Shown: positions 11,305 to 51,230 of the stretch, one piece after another
Layout: the number at the start of each line of letters is the position of its first letter
How positions within the stretch are numbered: the stretch's first letter is position 1
DNA from: Polyangium jinanense
Lineage (GTDB): Bacteria > Myxococcota > Polyangia > Polyangiales > Polyangiaceae
Reading direction: 5' to 3'
Assembly (NCBI RefSeq): GCF_028435365.1
Contig: NZ_JAGTJJ010000011.1
Coordinates: 62,001 to 126,000 of the forward strand
DNA length: 64,000 nt
The notes under the pieces: generated by a model
Databases searched by the model: none
What the model saw: the letters and a program-made list of their open reading frames with translations, nothing else
Told to the model about the DNA's origin: nothing
Position numbers and translations under genes: made by a program

Positions 11305-11493
11305 GCGGGACACCCTACTGCGCCCGCCGTCGCTCCTCAATAGATGCCACCTGTGCCATCCGCCCGCCGCCCCTCCTGGCAGCAGCGCCTCCGATGGCAC
11401 ACTCCGGCACCCCGGCACAGTCCCTTTTCGTGAGGAAATTCGAGGGGCGGGGTCCGAGCGCTCGGTGGCCCGGCGCTTGCTCAATGGCGGGGC

Positions 11494-44658: not shown

Positions 44659-46665
44659 ATGCGGACCTCCTTCATTTCGTACACGCGCGCGGCTTCCATC
44701 CTCGCCTCGATCCTCCTCTCCGCAAACGCCGCTTCGGCCGATGACGTGCGGGGGTTGCGATCGGACAAACTCGTGGAAAAGACGCACGTGGTCGATCTCC
44801 GCATCGGCCACGGTCACGCGGACCTGGTCGTGCGGCGCACGGTACACAATGGCGGTCCGCGCCACGATCAGGCGACGTTTTACATCGACATGCCGTCCGG
44901 CGCCGTGGCCGTCGGGCTACGCACGCTGGGGACCTTGGACGGCAAGCCGCACTGGTTCGACGGCGAATTGCTCGAGGCGGAGAAAGCGGCGGCGCGGTAT
45001 CGGGAGCTGACGGGCGTCGGCGGGTATTACCCGAAGGATCCGGCTTTGCTGTCGTGGCGGAGCCAGAACCTGCTCGCGCTGCAGGTCTTCCCCTGCCCGC
45101 CCGGCGAGGACAAGACGATCGAATACACGCTGCGGTTGCCCACGCAATACCGCGACGGGCGGCATCACCTCGATCTCACGGCCGCCCTGGGCACCGAGGA
45201 GCTGCCCGCCGCAGCCACGGTATCGCCGATGATCGCGGGCGAGGCGCTCTTCGTCGGCGATACGCGGCAAAAAGCGCCGGCACAGATCAGCCTGAAGGAG
45301 GCGGTGGACCTGTCGGTCGCGCCCGCGAGCGAAAAACCCGTCGAAGGCGCGCTCGCGTCGGTGGGGTTCGGCAAGCAGAAGAACGTCGTCCATTTCCACG
45401 TCGCCGCGGCGCCCGCACTCTCGCGTGTGCCCCGCGGCGCGCACGTCGTGGTGCTGATCGACGCCTCCCGATCGCTCGATCAGGAGCAGGTCGAGGCGGA
45501 GGTCGCCATGACGCGGGCGTATCTCTCCCACTTCCCGGACGCCCGCGCGGCGGTATTCACGTTCGATCGCGCGGTGCACGCCTCGAAAAAAGGGTTCGTC
45601 TCGGTACGCGAAGCGCTCGCCGGGCTCGACGGATCGCAGATTGTCCTGCGAAACGGGAGCCACATCGACGAGGCGCTCTCCCGCGCGGACGCGCTGCTCG
45701 CGGCCTTGCCGGAGAACACGCCGAAGCGGATCCTGGCCTTGACGGACACGCGCACGCGGCAGGAGCTCACGCCGGAGCGTCTGCGGGGTCAGCTCTCGAA
45801 GAGCGGCGCGCTCCTGCACGTCGGCGTGGTGGACAGCGCGTTCTCGACCACGCTCACGCGCGACGACACGCACGCCTGGGCGGCGATGACACGGCCCACG
45901 GGCGGGCTCGTGTGGCAAGCTTCGATGGATACGGCCGACCAGAGCGACGAGCCCCGAAAGGTGTACGAAGAGCTCGCGCGTCCCAAGCGGATCGATCATT
46001 TCCAGGTGCACGCGCAGGGCATTGCCCAGGAGGCGCTCGTGGCTCCCGAGGCGCTGGCGGAGGGCGAGTCGTTCGAGGACCTGCGTTTGTCGGACAAGCA
46101 GGTTCCCTTCGTGGAGGTGACCGGCGAGCTCTGGGCGACGCCCGTGCGCCGGGTGCTCGTCGCGGACGAGGCCGAAAATCGAAGGTGGGCGGGGCTCGTG
46201 TTCGGCTCGAACCTGCTGCATTCGATCGAAGAGGCGGACATGATGTCGCTCGCGGTGATGGGGCGGGCCGTGTCGCCGGTGACGAGTTATCTCGCGATCG
46301 AGCCGGGCGTGCGTCCTTCGACGGAAGGCATCGAGGAGTTCTCGGCAAGCGGCTGGGGCTTCGGGTCCAGCAATTGCCGGCTCTACGGCAGTCACCGCGC
46401 GAAGCCGCCGCAGATCAGCATGTTCGACAAGCAGGCGTTCCTGAAGGACGAGCTTTCGCGTGGGCTCGCTGCGTGCGGCGGCGCAGGGAAAAAGGCGACC
46501 GTAGGGCTTGAATCGACGCTCGAGGAGATCGTCTCGGTGCGGGCGACGATCGACGGGGAAAAGGCGGGGGCGAAGCTCGTCACGTGCCTGGAAGAGGCGG
46601 CGTGGGGGATCGAGCTGCCGGGGGCGTTCGCCTCAGTTTGGCAGGGTTTTACGGTCGTGCTTTGA
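44659..46665 (+). CDS. Exported VIT and VWA domain protein
   Basis: A 668-residue exported protein. Signal peptide ends near SANAASA (about 26). A VIT domain (about 40-170) includes FYIDMPSGAVAVGL and GELLEAEKAAARYREL. A von Willebrand A domain follows (about 260-430) with the MIDAS DASRS near residue 268 intact, so metal-dependent protein binding is likely. The C-terminus has Cys-bearing segments. This VIT-VWA pairing resembles inter-alpha-trypsin inhibitor heavy chains. Function in bacteria is unknown; surface adhesion is an inference. Confidence 0.85.
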   Translation: MRTSFISYTRAASILASILLSANAASADDVRGLRSDKLVEKTHVVDLRIGHGHADLVVRRTVHNGGPRHDQATFYIDMPSGAVAVGLRTLGTLDGKPHWFDGELLEAEKAAARYRELTGVGGYYPKDPALLSWRSQNLLALQVFPCPPGEDKTIEYTLRLPTQYRDGRHHLDLTAALGTEELPAAATVSPMIAGEALFVGDTRQKAPAQISLKEAVDLSVAPASEKPVEGALASVGFGKQKNVVHFHVAAAPALSRVPRGAHVVVLIDASRSLDQEQVEAEVAMTRAYLSHFPDARAAVFTFDRAVHASKKGFVSVREALAGLDGSQIVLRNGSHIDEALSRADALLAALPENTPKRILALTDTRTRQELTPERLRGQLSKSGALLHVGVVDSAFSTTLTRDDTHAWAAMTRPTGGLVWQASMDTADQSDEPRKVYEELARPKRIDHFQVHAQGIAQEALVAPEALAEGESFEDLRLSDKQVPFVEVTGELWATPVRRVLVADEAENRRWAGLVFGSNLLHSIEEADMMSLAVMGRAVSPVTSYLAIEPGVRPSTEGIEEFSASGWGFGSSNCRLYGSHRAKPPQISMFDKQAFLKDELSRGLAACGGAGKKATVGLESTLEEIVSVRATIDGEKAGAKLVTCLEEAAWGIELPGAFASVWQGFTVVL

Positions 46666-46677
46666 GCGGCACGTGGT

Positions 46678-48021
46678 TCATTGCAGCGCGGCGTTCCACA
46701 TCGCCTGCCAGAGCTCGGGGTACGCGCTCGCGACGCGCGCCGGGGCGTGGTCGCAAAGCGCGCGCGCCGCGAGGTCGAATGCGAGCGCGCCTTCCGTGCG
46801 GGGCGTGAGCGAGCGCTTGCATTTGCGGCCCGGTCGCTCGGGCGGGCTCGGCGGGACGGGCAAGGACGCGCGCGCGGCGCCGCGGTTCAGGACCGCGGAG
46901 ACGCTGCCGATCCCCTGCGCGGCACGGCGCGCGACGGCCTCGGAATAGGCGCCGTCCCCGAATTTCTCGGCGACGAGCTGCAGGATCGAGGTGTGGTCGA
47001 GCAGGCCGCCGTGGACCGTGCCGCGCTCGACGAGCGGCGAGACGACGATCGCAGGGACACGCACGCCCGCCGTCTTGAACGGTCCATCGTGGATCGGCGG
47101 CGGCGAGACGTGGTCGTAAAAACCTCCGTGCGAGGCATACGTGACGATGAAGAGCGTGCGGCCGAAGCGCTCGGCGTTCGACGTGAGCGCCTGGTAGACC
47201 TGGAGCAAGAATCGCTCGCCGGGCGCCATGGGCAGGGGCGGGCGGTTGTCGTTCGGCGGTCGGCCGAGGTGGAAGGGCGCGTCGAAATAAGAGGGTTCGA
47301 TGTAAATGACCTGGGGGAACGTGGCGTCGGGCTCGTTCCGGACGTCGTCCGCGAGCCGGACCGCCGAGCGGAAGCGATCGCTCGTGACCTCACCGTGCAT
47401 CCAGGGGCAAAGGGTGAAAAAGGACAAACCGTCGTGATACACACGATATCGGATGCCACGCTGCTTCATCCAGTCGAAGACCGTCTCGTGCAACGGCAAG
47501 AGCCGGGGCGTGGTGTCCGCGAGTAGAGAATAGCCGCACGTCGCCATGAGCCGGTTCGGCGCCATACCCGTAGGCAGCGGAGCGAACCAGCGGTCACAGA
47601 CGGCATAACTCTTCGCCAGGAAGTTCGTGACGGGCGCGCCCGAGCACCGCAGAAAGCCCATCGGCAAGGTTCGCGACGCGCGGTGCGCCGAAAGCGCATG
47701 CGCCCGCACGAAGCCATCCATCGCGCGCTCGCCCGAGGAGGTTCTGCGGCCGAGGGAGAGATGGACGGAATGGCTATCCTCGGGCAGCTCCGCGGACATT
47801 GCGCCGTCGCGCATCTCTTGCGGATGGTGCACGCGTCCCTCGCAGGTGTTCTCGTAGCGCGTGTCGAGGAGCTTCCCGTCGACCGGCGTGCCCACGAGCC
47901 CGTCGAGCTGCCCCTCGTACGGTCCGCCGTCGAGGCTCAGATGGCCGAGGACGTGATCGAACGACCTGCTCTGCATCATCAGGACAACGATGGTGTCGAT
48001 GTCCTCGAGTTTGTCGGGCAC
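46678..48021 (-). CDS. Phosphoesterase (phospholipase C/AcpA) family protein with altered active site
   Basis: A 447-residue protein of the phosphoesterase family (PF04185-type). The fold motifs are present but changed: MMQSRSFDHVLG (15-26) where ENRSFDH is expected, TGMAPNR (151-157) where the nucleophilic Ser/Thr two residues before PNR is now Met, and YASHGGFYDH (295-304) where DE(H/N)GGFYDH is expected. These are metal-binding and nucleophile positions in the family, so classical activity looks lost. IEPSYFD (241-247) is kept. No signal peptide. Starts with GTG after GGAGGTAGG. It has its own sigma-54 promoter and an adjacent divergent activator gene. Confidence 0.8.
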   Translation of the reverse strand: MPDKLEDIDTIVVLMMQSRSFDHVLGHLSLDGGPYEGQLDGLVGTPVDGKLLDTRYENTCEGRVHHPQEMRDGAMSAELPEDSHSVHLSLGRRTSSGERAMDGFVRAHALSAHRASRTLPMGFLRCSGAPVTNFLAKSYAVCDRWFAPLPTGMAPNRLMATCGYSLLADTTPRLLPLHETVFDWMKQRGIRYRVYHDGLSFFTLCPWMHGEVTSDRFRSAVRLADDVRNEPDATFPQVIYIEPSYFDAPFHLGRPPNDNRPPLPMAPGERFLLQVYQALTSNAERFGRTLFIVTYASHGGFYDHVSPPPIHDGPFKTAGVRVPAIVVSPLVERGTVHGGLLDHTSILQLVAEKFGDGAYSEAVARRAAQGIGSVSAVLNRGAARASLPVPPSPPERPGRKCKRSLTPRTEGALAFDLAARALCDHAPARVASAYPELWQAMWNAALQ

Positions 48022-48066
48022 GGCCTACCTCCAACTGGTTACCCGTCGAAATGCGAAAATAGGGTT

Positions 48067-48082
48067 TGCACGCGGCGTGCCA
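48067..48082 (-). promoter_or_regulatory. Sigma-54 (-24/-12) promoter for phosphoesterase gene
   Basis: On the minus strand TGGCACGCCGCGTGCA has the required GG and GC doublets exactly 10 nt apart and matches TGGCAC(G)N4-5TTGC(A) with one change. Transcription is expected to start near 48056, leaving a leader of about 35 nt that contains GGAGGT before GTG 48021. Confidence 0.75.
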
Positions 48083-48161
48083 GCGTGGAACGATGCACTC
48101 GTGAGCTTGAATAGGGGCTCGACACACCGCGGCGACACCCCGCGCATCACGGCCCACACCG

Positions 48162-48204
48162 GACGTATCTCCGACGTGTCGGCGGACGTGTCCGTCGACA
48201 TGTC
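48162..48204. promoter_or_regulatory. Four-site direct-repeat operator (likely activator binding sites)
   Basis: GACGTATC (48162), GACGTGTC (48173), GACGTGTC (48185) and GACATGTC (48197) are spaced 11, 12 and 12 bp; the last is a perfect palindrome. They lie 105-148 bp upstream of the inferred sigma-54 start site and about 50-95 bp upstream of the activator gene, fitting an enhancer shared by both. Confidence 0.6.
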
Positions 48205-48219
48205 GAACGCGTCGTAGGC

Positions 48220-48249
48220 TTGTCGAACGCCCCCTTTTCGTGATATCAA
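48220..48249 (+). promoter_or_regulatory. Possible sigma-70-type promoter of the activator gene
   Basis: TTGTCG (48220-48225) and TATCAA (48244-48249) are 18 bp apart. The start site would fall almost on GTG 48256, implying a leaderless mRNA; weak evidence. Confidence 0.3.
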
Positions 48250-48255
48250 GAGTAC

Positions 48256-49875
48256 GTGTCCTCACAAGACGCGGAGCTCTCGACGCTCGATGGGCTCAAC
48301 CCGCCGACACACGCAGACGGCCCCGAGGCGGGGTTCGGGAGTTCCCGCGTCCCCACGTTGACGATTGTCTGGCACCCGACGGTGGAGCGGGTCGGCGATC
48401 GGGCACTCTTGCCGCTGCCAGCAGGCGGCGCGGGCACGGAGCTGTCACGCCTCGATCCCGAGTTCTCGCGCCCGGGTTCGAGCCGGCGCGAGCCGCTCGG
48501 CGATGCGCACGTGAGCCGCAAAGCCATACGCCTGCTCCGGCTCGAAAACGAATGCATTCGTATCGATACGCAAGGCAGCCCCACGCGTATCGTCGCGAAC
48601 GGAAGTTTGCTTCAAGGCTGCCGCGATTTCTCGACGGATGATTTGAAGGCCGGGATCGTACTGGAGCTCGCGAGCCGCATCGTGCTCCTCTTGCATCTCG
48701 ACGAGCTGCGCCAGGAGTCGGAGGATAACCTCGGCCTCGTGGGCGCGAGCCTGGGAATCGAGCGCGTTCGCCGTGAGATCCGGCAGCTCACGAACCTCGA
48801 CGTGCCCGTTTTGGTGCGCGGTGAAACCGGGACGGGTAAAGAGCTCGTCGCGCGTGCTCTCCATAACACGGGAGAGCGGCGGAGTCGGCCTTTCGTGGCC
48901 GTGAACATGGGCGCCATCCCACCCGCGCTCGCCGCCTCCGAGCTGTTCGGGTCCGACAAGGGCGCCTTCACAGGCGCGCGCGCCCACTCCGGTTACTTCG
49001 GCGCCGCGGAAGATGGGACGCTATTTCTCGATGAAGTGGGCGAGATGCCGCTCGACGTGCAGGCGTCCTTGCTCCGCGCCCTCGACGTGGGTGAGGTGCA
49101 GACGCTCGGGGCCTCGCGTATGCGAGAGACGCGGGCGCGTATCGTCGCCGCGACCGACGCGAATCTCGAAGTGAAGGTGCAAACGGGGGCCTTCCGCGCG
49201 CCGCTCTTGCATCGGCTCTCCAGCTACGAGCTCGTGATTCCGCCCCTGCGCCAGCGGCGGGACGATATCGGGCGTCTGTTCGTACATTTTCTCCGCACCG
49301 AGCTCGATCGCTTCGGAAAGGCGGACCGGATCCCATTGAACCAGGTGGGGCTCCCCGCGTCGTTCATGGCGGCGCTCGTCCGGCACGATTGGCCCGGAAA
49401 CGTGAGACAGCTCCGGAATGTCGTGCGGCAGCTCGTCCTCGGAAGCCACAACACAGGCCCGCTGGATCCGGGTCCGGCGCTTGCGGTGCTGCTTTCGATG
49501 AACCCGCCGCCCGCGGGCGGAGGCTTCGGGAACGCCGGCGGAACCGAGACGGGGGCCTCGCCGACCAAGGAGCCCATGACGCCGCGACGCAGCCGCAAGC
49601 CGAGCGACGTGACCGTGGAGGAGCTGCACGAGGCGCTGCGCGCGTGCGACTTCGACATGAAGGCCACGGCCGAGCGGCTGAGGATTCCGCGGAGCTCGAT
49701 CTACAACCTCGTCGATCAACACAAGGTGCGGCGCGCGAGCGACCTCGGACGGGACGAGATCCTGCGCTGCTCCCGGGAATGCGACGGGAACGTCGAGCTG
49801 ATGGCGAGGCACCTCGGCGTCTCGAAGGTGGCGCTGCAGCGGCGCATGCGCGAGCTCAAAATCAGCATCGGCTGA
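48256..49875 (+). CDS. Sigma-54-dependent activator with FHA-like N-terminus and tandem HTH
   Basis: A 539-residue bacterial enhancer-binding protein. Residues 30-125 look FHA-like (LGDAHVSRKAIRL, with Ala where His is usual), so regulation by phosphothreonine binding is plausible. The AAA+ core has Walker A GETGTGKE (189-196), GAFTGA (236-241, sigma-54 contact loop) and Walker B TLFLDE (255-260), all intact. The C-terminus has two helix-turn-helix units, KATAERLRIPRSSIYNLV and ELMARHLGVSKVALQRRM, where one Fis-type unit is usual. Starts with GTG. It probably activates the divergent phosphoesterase gene. Confidence 0.88.
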   Translation: MSSQDAELSTLDGLNPPTHADGPEAGFGSSRVPTLTIVWHPTVERVGDRALLPLPAGGAGTELSRLDPEFSRPGSSRREPLGDAHVSRKAIRLLRLENECIRIDTQGSPTRIVANGSLLQGCRDFSTDDLKAGIVLELASRIVLLLHLDELRQESEDNLGLVGASLGIERVRREIRQLTNLDVPVLVRGETGTGKELVARALHNTGERRSRPFVAVNMGAIPPALAASELFGSDKGAFTGARAHSGYFGAAEDGTLFLDEVGEMPLDVQASLLRALDVGEVQTLGASRMRETRARIVAATDANLEVKVQTGAFRAPLLHRLSSYELVIPPLRQRRDDIGRLFVHFLRTELDRFGKADRIPLNQVGLPASFMAALVRHDWPGNVRQLRNVVRQLVLGSHNTGPLDPGPALAVLLSMNPPPAGGGFGNAGGTETGASPTKEPMTPRRSRKPSDVTVEELHEALRACDFDMKATAERLRIPRSSIYNLVDQHKVRRASDLGRDEILRCSRECDGNVELMARHLGVSKVALQRRMRELKISIG

Positions 49876-49932: not shown

Positions 49933-50739
49933 ATGTCGTCCGCCTCGACCGCCCCCCACGCCTCCGTTCGTCCCACCCCCACGCTGCGGGAGTGGCTCCG
50001 CGAAGGTCCCTTTTCCATGGGCCTTTCGTCAGGGTTCTTCGGGTTTTTCGCGCACGCGGGGGTGATGACCGTGCTCGAAGACGAAGGGCTCTTGCCCACG
50101 CGGGTCTCGGGCTCGAGCGCGGGCGCGCTCGTGGGCGGGATCTGGGCGGCGGGCGCGAGCGCGGTGACGATCCGCGACGAGCTTTTGCGGCTCAAGCGTG
50201 AGGATTTTTGGGACGTGCGGCTCGGGCCGGGGCTGCTCGCGGGCAAACTCTTCCGCGCACGGCTCGAAGCGCTCTTGCCGGTGCGCTCGTTCGATCGGTG
50301 CCGCGTGCCGCTCGCGGTGAGCGTGTACGATGTGTTCGCCCGCGGGACGCGTGTGCTCGCGGAAGGGCCGCTCGCGCCGGCAATCCAGGCGTCGTGCACG
50401 GTGCCGGGGCTGTTTCATCCCGTCTGGCACGAGGGGCGGCCGCTGCTCGACGGCGGGATCCTCGACCGGCACGGGCTCGCCGGAATGCCCGCAGGTGAGC
50501 GGCTTTTTTATCACCACCTCGCGTCGCGCTCGCCGTGGCGAAAGGTGGACAGCCCATCGCTAAAGGTGCCGGAGCGCGCGGGGATGAGCGCGCTCGTCAT
50601 CGAGTCGCTTCCGCGCGTGGGTCCGTTCCGTCTGCCCGAAGGCGCGCGCGCCTTCGACATCGCGGCGCGGGCGACGCGAGAGGCACTTTCCCGGCCCACG
50701 AAGGGCTCCGAAATCCGCGTGCAGGGAGGTTTGGCATGA
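49933..50739 (+). CDS. Patatin-like phospholipase
   Basis: A 268-residue patatin-family acyl hydrolase. The oxyanion region GFFGFFAHAGV (34-44) precedes the nucleophile elbow GSSAG (60-64, Ser62). The second catalytic residue is in LLDGGILD (Asp about 171). Usually hydrolyses phospholipid or other lipid esters. No signal peptide, so intracellular unless exported otherwise. Its stop overlaps the cupin ATG (ATGA at 50736-50739), so the two are translated together. Confidence 0.88.
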   Translation: MSSASTAPHASVRPTPTLREWLREGPFSMGLSSGFFGFFAHAGVMTVLEDEGLLPTRVSGSSAGALVGGIWAAGASAVTIRDELLRLKREDFWDVRLGPGLLAGKLFRARLEALLPVRSFDRCRVPLAVSVYDVFARGTRVLAEGPLAPAIQASCTVPGLFHPVWHEGRPLLDGGILDRHGLAGMPAGERLFYHHLASRSPWRKVDSPSLKVPERAGMSALVIESLPRVGPFRLPEGARAFDIAARATREALSRPTKGSEIRVQGGLA

Positions 50740-51230
50740 CCGACGAATCCACGAAAAAACCGTGTCTCATCCGGGCCCGCGACCGCGGACCCGAGGCCTC
50801 GATGTCGCATCCGTTCAACCCGAATTCGCTGATCCACGGGCACCTCCTGGGAATGGCGACCGGGCTCGAACGAATCGGGGTCAATTTGATCCGGGTGCCG
50901 CCGGGGAAAGAGTCGTTCATTTATCATCGCCATCACGGCGAGGAGGAGTTCCTCTACATCCTGAGCGGCCGGGGCATCGCCGAGATCGGGGACGAGGAAT
51001 TCGAGGTGGGGCCGGGTGATTTCATGGGTTTTCCCGTGCCGTCGGTGGCCCATCACCTCAAAAACCCGTTCGAGGAAGACCTCGTGTACCTCTCGTGCGG
51101 CGAGAAGAAGCCGACCGAGATCGCCGAGTTCCCGCGGCTCGGCAAGACGATGATCCGCTCGGGCAACCAGGTCTCGCTCTTCGAGACGAGCGCGGCCGAG
51201 GCGTTTCCCGGGCTCGAAAAGGTGAAATGA
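50736..51230 (+). CDS. Cupin domain protein
   Basis: A 164-residue single-domain cupin. Metal-site motif 1 is FIYHRHHGEEEFLYILSGRG (61-80) giving His64, His66 and Glu70 or Glu71; motif 2 is GPGDFMGFPVPSVAHHL with a late His. It may be a small isomerase, dioxygenase or sensor. Translationally coupled to the patatin gene, so a role in processing the released lipid product is a reasonable guess, no more. Confidence 0.8.
   Translation: MTDESTKKPCLIRARDRGPEASMSHPFNPNSLIHGHLLGMATGLERIGVNLIRVPPGKESFIYHRHHGEEEFLYILSGRGIAEIGDEEFEVGPGDFMGFPVPSVAHHLKNPFEEDLVYLSCGEKKPTEIAEFPRLGKTMIRSGNQVSLFETSAAEAFPGLEKVK

What the first reader, a model, noticed from the sequence alone, without database searches (positions are those of the whole stretch)
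48021..48256. Dedicated sigma-54 activator, enhancer array and target promoter in one divergent unit
The minus-strand TGGCACGCCGCGTGCA (48067-48082) keeps GG and GC exactly 10 nt apart and lies about 35 nt before the phosphoesterase GTG. Four direct GAC(G/A)T(G/A)TC sites spaced 11-12 bp lie 105-148 bp upstream, the normal zone for enhancer-binding proteins. The divergent neighbour encodes such a protein with intact GAFTGA. This is a self-contained switch: FHA-like input, looping activator, single target. I do not know of this pairing being described.
Basis: partly seen in the sequence, partly recalled or inferred. Interest (0 to 1): 0.75.

Follow-up and report, generated by a model that had tools for sequence, protein, structure and literature searches.

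The report
Sigma-54 switch driving a dead phosphoesterase
In the soil bacterium Polyangium, an activator protein, its tandem DNA-binding sites and the promoter it most likely switches on sit together between two diverging genes, an arrangement already known elsewhere, but the gene being switched appears to encode an enzyme that has lost its catalytic site while being kept intact by selection.

Summary
The -24/-12 element (48067-48082, minus) and four octamers (48162-48204) are unlikely by chance and kept in 6 of 6 held Polyangium genomes; one relative has duplicated the array. The octamer is better written as the palindrome GACRYGTC. In three other genomes holding the nearest activator homologues, 5 of 5 places with paired sites have a -24/-12 element pointing away 67-140 bp off, but the targets differ: regulator and site travel together while the target changes. 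The layout is a known kind (Desulfovibrio, PMC4641369).

The stranger part is the target. This PF04185 phospholipase C/acid phosphatase homologue has all eight active-site positions that matter in plant NPC4 replaced. Its clade lacks both acidic ligands in 36 of 36 rows; 190 of 190 other homologues compared keep them. dN/dS is 0.12-0.17: a maintained pseudoenzyme rather than a decaying gene. FHA-like input is plausible but not established. 'Single target' is unproven. Binding, transcription and enzyme activity are unmeasured.

The parts
48067..48082 (-). sigma-54 type -24/-12 promoter TGGCACGCCGCGTGCA for the 46678-48021 gene; predicted start near 48056 (inferred)
   Evidence: GG and GC kept in 7 of 7 Polyangium rows
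48162..48204 (.). array of four octamers (GACGTATC, GACGTGTC, GACGTGTC, GACATGTC), consensus GACRYGTC, 11-12 bp apart: proposed binding sites of the divergent activator, about 105-148 bp upstream of the predicted start
   Evidence: whole array duplicated in tandem in L006 (genome G002)
48099..48131 (.). third conserved block CGTGAGCTTnnAnAGGGGCTCGACA(C/T)ACC between promoter and array (contains GAGC-N10-GCTC); role unknown: DNA bending or a second regulator
   Evidence: 24/33 invariant; boundaries chosen after seeing the alignment; found once per genome in 6 of 6 genomes with up to 3 mismatches (the reversed control pattern hit once, in G003)
46678..48021 (-). target gene, PF04185 fold, 447 aa, all eight NPC4 active-site positions replaced: proposed pseudoenzyme
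48256..49875 (+). sigma-54 activator, 539 aa: beta-rich, possibly FHA-like N-terminus (about 31-150), AAA+ domain with GAFTGA (162-397), two C-terminal three-helix HTH bundles (454-488, 499-533)
48218..48255 (+). putative promoter of the activator gene itself (partly conserved GGCTTGT...TATC), almost no leader before GTG 48256
   Evidence: alignment; only 22/38 invariant; no sigma-70 consensus hit, so weak
48028..48034 (-). Shine-Dalgarno-like GGAGG upstream of GTG 48021
   Evidence: CCTCC (plus strand) readable in all seven rows, shifted by gaps

Best explanation
A sigma-54 switch in Polyangium. The activator (48256-49875), probably controlled through its N-terminal domain (possibly a divergent FHA domain that reads a phosphorylated partner), assembles on the GACRYGTC array, loops over about 80-150 bp and drives open-complex formation by sigma-54 RNA polymerase at 48067-48082, expressing one gene. 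That gene product keeps the phospholipase C/acid phosphatase fold but has lost the nucleophile, metal ligands and acid/base histidines, so it most likely works by binding (a lipid, phosphoester or partner protein), not by catalysis. Shown here: the sequence elements, their conservation, the same site-promoter grammar in genomes with related activators, the predicted fold, the loss of catalytic residues and purifying selection. Inferred: binding, looping, rpoN dependence, the phospho-signal and the non-catalytic role.
For: Promoter and array above chance and conserved in 7 of 7 rows; array duplicated as a unit in one relative. GACRYGTC-N4-GACRYGTC occurs at this locus in six of six Polyangium genomes and at five other places in all (the reversed control pattern hit nothing in five genomes and 2+2 times in G005). 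The GACATGTC-anchored pattern is found only at this locus in those six (control 0). In three other genomes with activators on the same side of the tree (50-55% identity), all five places with GACATGTC-anchored pairs have a -24/-12 element of at least 9/12 pointing away 67-140 bp off (at random places in the same loci 0.088 for >=9 and 0.022 for >=10). Of the five off-locus pairs in Polyangium, four lie in long open frames and have no such element. One rpoN-type gene in 9 of 9 genomes. Target: 8 of 8 NPC4 active-site positions replaced; A at D299 in 36 of 36 clade rows against D in 190 of 190 others; dN/dS 0.12-0.17 in six comparisons; AF2 pLDDT 91.7, best PDB match NPC4 (8haw, E 3.8e-28), AcpA also found.
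Against: No transcript, footprint or assay. Conservation within the genus comes from a syntenic 20 kb, so six relatives are not six independent events; against four-fold sites the excess is marginal. The chance figures for the five foreign arrays use random places in the fetched loci, genes included, and were computed after the elements had been seen. G130's array lies on another contig than its activator and no plus-strand gene was called right after its -24/-12 element. A possible second target exists in G006. Three of 36 clade rows keep T and 21 keep S at the nucleophile position, and P0005 keeps D, H and H at the D76, H79 and H264 positions, so not every clade member is as thoroughly altered as the Polyangium proteins; the Polyangium protein could also support another chemistry.
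Confidence: 0.72

Rival explanations
1. The array belongs to the activator but serves chiefly to control the activator's own promoter (array about 50-94 bp before its GTG), while the divergent gene is under sigma-54 but answers to another activator.
For: The array lies nearer the activator's gene; the third conserved block 48099-48131, nearer the sigma-54 promoter, could be another activator's site; each Polyangium genome holds 61-73 matches to this activator family at E<=1e-3.
Against: In G123 and G126 the same sites lie about 2.2-2.5 kb from the activator's start and upstream of -24/-12 elements in front of other genes.
Confidence: 0.15
2. The 16-mer is a palindromic operator (GCACGC-G-GCGTGC) of an ordinary repressor, not a sigma-54 promoter.
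For: The window sequence holds a 13-nt palindrome inside the element.
Against: The palindrome is broken in 5 of 6 relatives (GCACGCGGCATGC or GCACGGGACATGC), whereas TGG and GC at -24/-12 are kept in 7 of 7 rows; no sigma-70-type consensus in 48000-48300.
Confidence: 0.05
3. The target protein is still an enzyme, with an active site rebuilt from other residues, rather than a binding protein.
For: In the wider clade 25 of 36 rows keep E at the E23 position, 21 of 36 have S and 3 have T at the nucleophile position; strong purifying selection.
Against: Neither acidic ligand (D299, E300) is present in any of the 36 clade rows, and in Polyangium the nucleophile position is M or V in all seven genomes.
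Confidence: 0.15
4. The target gene is a decaying pseudogene.
For: Loss of the whole catalytic set.
Against: Open frame in 7 of 7 genomes and dN/dS 0.12-0.17, near that of the neighbouring patatin gene, 0.08-0.15.
Confidence: 0.02

Closest known systems
Divergent one-component sigma-54 activators of Desulfovibrio vulgaris, such as DVU3142/ohc and DVU2956/DVU2957 (PMC4641369, passages seen)
   Same: Activator gene divergent from a sigma-54 promoter, with predicted sites upstream of the target; found by comparative logic; for DVU2957 the regulator was assigned by EMSA there. Six of thirteen one-component activator genes there are divergent from sigma-54 promoters.
   Different: Other regulators, sites and targets; no pseudoenzyme mentioned in the passages seen.
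NorR/norVW, PspF/pspA, PrpR/prpBCDE (recalled)
   Same: Activator divergent from, and largely dedicated to, one sigma-54 operon.
   Different: Other sensory domains; none of the 25 NCBIfam models listed for this protein reaches its cut-off.
FHA-containing enhancer-binding proteins of Myxococcus xanthus (Jelsbak 2005; only the title seen, in a reference list)
   Same: Myxobacterial sigma-54 activators with an FHA domain.
   Different: Here FHA is not found by Pfam and rests on a profile comparison.
Plant non-specific phospholipase C NPC4 / Francisella acid phosphatase AcpA fold
   Same: Fold and motif framework (RSFDH, PNR, GGFYDH).
   Different: All eight active-site positions replaced in the window protein.
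YejM/PbgA, a periplasmic hydrolase-like domain (its regulatory role recalled; search listing and abstracts only; one listed title calls it a metalloenzyme)
   Same: A hydrolase fold of the alkaline phosphatase superfamily used in regulation; appears among weaker fold matches (6vat, E 2.7e-6).
   Different: Membrane-anchored, other branch of the superfamily; its lack of activity is itself disputed by that title.

Membership tests
sigma-54 (RpoN) promoter | GG and GC at -24/-12, exact 10-nt gap, conserved | tested here: met
sigma-54 (RpoN) promoter | transcription depends on rpoN and starts about 12 nt downstream | not testable with these tools
   one PF04552 match in each of 9 genomes; dependence untested
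Bacterial enhancer-binding protein | AAA+ sigma-54 interaction domain with GAFTGA and Walker motifs | tested here: met
Bacterial enhancer-binding protein | Fis-type HTH for DNA binding | tested here: met
   HTH_8, two stretches; two three-helix bundles in the model
Bacterial enhancer-binding protein | binds the upstream array and activates by looping | not testable with these tools
   only comparative support
FHA-domain enhancer-binding protein | FHA domain | tested here: inconclusive
   Not among Pfam matches of the window protein nor the 25 of 38 families shown for 48 members; G006 orthologue not reported at E<=10; hhalign to a profile from 23 of the 30 fetched G006 FHA loci: 85.9% local, 56.5% global, controls 0.2% and 0.5%; beta-rich N-terminus; no hit among solved chains
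PF04185 phosphoesterase / NPC-AcpA enzymes | fold | tested here: met
   PF04185 E 3.1e-45; Foldseek 8haw, 8hav, 8k3g, 2d1g
PF04185 phosphoesterase / NPC-AcpA enzymes | active-site set E23, N24, D76, H79, T158, H264, D299, E300 (NPC4 numbering, PMC9837106, passages) | tested here: not met
   Q17, S18, E78, E81, M153, R260, A296, S297 in the window protein; the D76/H79 positions are less securely aligned

The most novel reading that the evidence does not exclude
A clade of bacterial pseudo-phospholipases C, catalytically dead but under purifying selection, has become a ligand-binding or regulatory protein; in Polyangium its synthesis was captured by a phosphorylation-responsive sigma-54 switch whose regulator and binding site also exist, in Sorangium-type relatives, in front of other operons.
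Probability: 0.4. Interest if true: 0.68.

Novelty: new variant of a known kind. Interest (0 to 1): 0.5.

Why it matters
It proposes a DNA site (GACRYGTC) and a target for one of the many sigma-54 activators of large myxobacterial genomes (61-73 matches per Polyangium genome), and a case where regulator and site stay while the target is exchanged. It also uncovers an apparently dead branch of a much-studied phospholipase/phosphatase family that source annotations call 'phospholipase C' or 'alkaline phosphatase family protein' (names shown), so that annotation and function would part ways.

Tried and rejected
Searching the window's own genome: not held; relatives round G001 used. Paralogous activators (49-51% identity) as further pairs: 10 neighbourhoods were gene-called and read by eye; none of the PF04185-type matches lies inside any of the ten stretches, so the pairing is not a habit of the family. 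Pseudo-clade outside Polyangium: at E<=1e-70 nothing further in 108 family or 183 order genomes; in 377 sampled phylum genomes one 41% match (G245), whose active site I did not inspect. P0005-P0029 come mostly from unnamed metagenome contigs (two list ncbi as a source), so their neighbours are unknown; none of their longest-contig lengths recurs in the 120 activators listed of 2077 (compared by eye), which says little. The nearest activators outside the genus, P0129 (60%) and P0130 (57%, a Sorangium strain), could not be seen in context. Palindromic operator: rejected. Known RNA in 47900-48400: none at E<=0.1. FHA among solved chains by sequence: no hit. The whole-model fold search for the activator was filled by the AAA+ domain, so its N-terminus was not tested by fold. 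Papers: (no paper), 27, 59, 60, 67, 68, 71, 81, 82 were listings with the start of abstracts; passages were read in PMC9837106, PMC12288465 (reference list only) and PMC4641369; PMC7643160 held none of the terms. I saw neither this pairing nor a dead PF04185 clade in those listings; that does not prove absence from print.
Full report
WHAT IS THERE. The window is Polyangium-type DNA: the nearest held genome, G001, shares 24% of sampled 31-mers, and its contig has the same length and match region as a record of Polyangium sp. 15x6. The spacer 48022-48255 separates a minus-strand PF04185 gene (46678-48021) from a plus-strand sigma-54 activator gene (48256-49875). The element matches 11 of 12 specified consensus positions (consensus recalled); by shuffling, about 5e-4 such matches are expected in this spacer on that strand; a second 11/12 match lies elsewhere in the window, at 11466.

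CONSERVATION. All six held Polyangium genomes keep both genes and the order around them over about 20 kb, except that the small gene 50736-51230 gave no match in G002. The aligned spacer shows TGGCA(C/T)G-N4-GTGCA in 7 of 7 rows, and octamers GACGTATC, GACGTGTC, GACATGTC or GACACGTC; in L006 (G002) the first is GCCGTATC and the array is duplicated in tandem, giving eight sites. Against four-fold degenerate sites of nine genes of the neighbourhood (1218/2116 invariant) the excess is marginal (p=0.089 for the promoter core, 0.061 for the array); those sites are probably constrained by high-GC codon use, but this is the weaker result and is told as such. A third block, 48099-48131, is 24/33 invariant and its core occurs once per genome; its limits were drawn after seeing the alignment.

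SITE AND REGULATOR GO TOGETHER. Pairs GACRYGTC-N4-GACRYGTC occur at this locus in six of six genomes and at five other places in all; the reversed control pattern hit only in G005, 2+2 times. Of those five places, four lie in long open frames and have no -24/-12 match of 9 or more; one, in G006, has an 11/12 match 126 bp away, upstream of a gene for a repeat-rich, lipoprotein-like product (by eye), and is a possible second target. The best activator homologues outside the genus among 108 family genomes are in G123, G126 and G130 (52-55% identity, 51-52% by tblastn). In the tree of 69 rows they and the Polyangium orthologues lie on one side of a branch with support 100/98, and the ten Polyangium paralogues on the other; the three do not form one group among themselves. 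A search of nine genomes for GACATGTC-N(2-5)-GACRYGTC gave, outside Polyangium, five distinct places, none dropped; all five have a -24/-12 element pointing away from the array at 67-140 bp, scores 9, 9, 10, 10, 10. Random places in the same loci reach 9 in 8.8% and 10 in 2.2% of 20000 trials. The genes behind them differ: in G123 a small protein, then a PF12902 ferritin-like protein, with a protein kinase gene between array and activator; in G126 a similar gene order by eye; in G123 also a 206-aa lipoprotein-like gene behind four GACATGTC copies; for the third G123 place and for G130 no gene was called directly behind the element. I take this as the strongest evidence that GACRYGTC is the activator's site and that the -24/-12 elements are used, and also as evidence that the phosphoesterase gene is only one of the targets that this regulator clade serves.

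THE ACTIVATOR. PF00158 E 1.2e-55, GAFTGA intact, Fis-type HTH in two stretches. The predicted structure (pLDDT 86.8) has a beta-rich N-terminus, an AAA+ domain and two separate three-helix bundles at the C-terminus. Tandem HTHs reading an array of closely spaced sites is an attractive but untested idea. FHA: it is not among the 25 of 38 Pfam families shown for 48 members, and a PF00498 search of G006 listed 78 matches, none at the orthologue. A profile from 23 of the 30 fetched G006 FHA loci (seven left out) aligns to the N-terminal profile with 85.9% probability locally (P 5e-6) and 56.5% globally, against 0.2% and 0.5% for two controls. A divergent FHA domain is therefore plausible, not established.

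THE TARGET. The 447-aa protein has the NPC/AcpA fold: AF2 pLDDT 91.7, Foldseek best 8haw E 3.8e-28, AcpA 2d1g at 9.6e-18. In NPC4, alanine replacement of E23, N24, H79, T158, H264, D299 or E300 dramatically reduced or abolished activity, and D76A reduced it (PMC9837106, passages). In an alignment of 227 rows, NPC4 included, the window protein has Q, S, E, E, M, R, A, S at E23, N24, D76, H79, T158, H264, D299, E300 (D76 and H79 less securely aligned). The rows were the best 120 of 1938 proteins, the best 80 of 423 loci and the 30 loci; five duplicate loci (L061-L064, L134) were dropped before the count. Among 36 clade rows (the window, P0001-P0029, L001-L006; some rows are the same protein) D299 is A in 36, E300 is S in 35 and A in 1, N24 is S in 31 and G in 5, H264 is R in 33, Q in 2 and H in 1, T158 is S in 21, M in 6, V in 5, T in 3 and A in 1, E23 is E in 25 and Q in 11. 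Among 190 other homologues D299 and E300 are kept in 190, E23 and N24 in 189 (one gap), T158 in 189 (one S), H264 in 187, H79 in 186, D76 in 177. So the acidic ligands were lost by the whole clade, the rest most thoroughly in Polyangium. dN/dS of the window against six relatives is 0.12-0.17, near the neighbouring patatin gene (0.08-0.15) and lower than the activator itself (0.23-0.36). The simplest reading is a maintained pseudoenzyme. What it binds is unknown.

MECHANISM. Most likely: a signal read by the N-terminal domain lets the activator oligomerise on the array, contact sigma-54 polymerase at 48067-48082 by looping and remodel it with ATP, producing a one-gene message (the next gene downstream, 44659-46665, is convergent; no terminator was sought there). 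The array may also control the activator's own promoter. Every step after the DNA sequence is inference.

KNOWN OR NEW. The layout is a known kind: in D. [quoted passage not shown] FHA activators of myxobacteria are known (title only). In the listed searches I did not see this pairing, this site, or a dead PF04185 clade. I score the switch as a well-supported new case of a known kind and the dead target as what makes it worth attention.

Facts mended on re-reading the calls: the FHA statement now names the capped list and the weaker global score; the kinase note no longer includes L185; control hits are told; the clade rows that keep single catalytic residues are told; the list caps behind the 190 homologues are told.

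Noticed in passing
49933-51230: A patatin-type phospholipase gene (PF01734) and a small gene (164 aa, cupin-like by eye, not scanned by Pfam) follow the activator on the same strand, after 57 bp and overlapping by 4 bp; the patatin gene is kept in 6 of 6 relatives, the small gene found in 5 of 6. A lipid theme with the target is possible.
   Followed up: partly
48099-48131: A conserved block, found once per genome in six genomes, lies between promoter and array.
   Followed up: partly
48240-48260: The activator's GTG follows a conserved TATC with almost no leader and no clear ribosome site: possibly a leaderless message.
   Followed up: no
L006 (G002), spacer: The complete four-site array is duplicated in tandem (offset 52 bp), giving eight sites.
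   Followed up: yes
L193 3659-4473 (G123): Four GACATGTC copies upstream of a -24/-12 element and a 206-aa lipoprotein-like gene: likely another member of the related regulon.
   Followed up: partly
L226 1765-1925 (G006): GACGCGTC repeats 126 bp from an 11/12 sigma-54 element before a repeat-rich lipoprotein-like gene: possible second target or a sister activator's site.
   Followed up: partly
L165, L166, L186: Some related activator genes have a eukaryotic-type protein kinase gene next door (L186 confirmed by Pfam; L165 and L166 by eye); none was seen next to the window's activator.
   Followed up: partly
window 11466-11481: A second 11/12 sigma-54-like element, TGGCCCGGCGCTTGCT, plus strand.
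   Followed up: no
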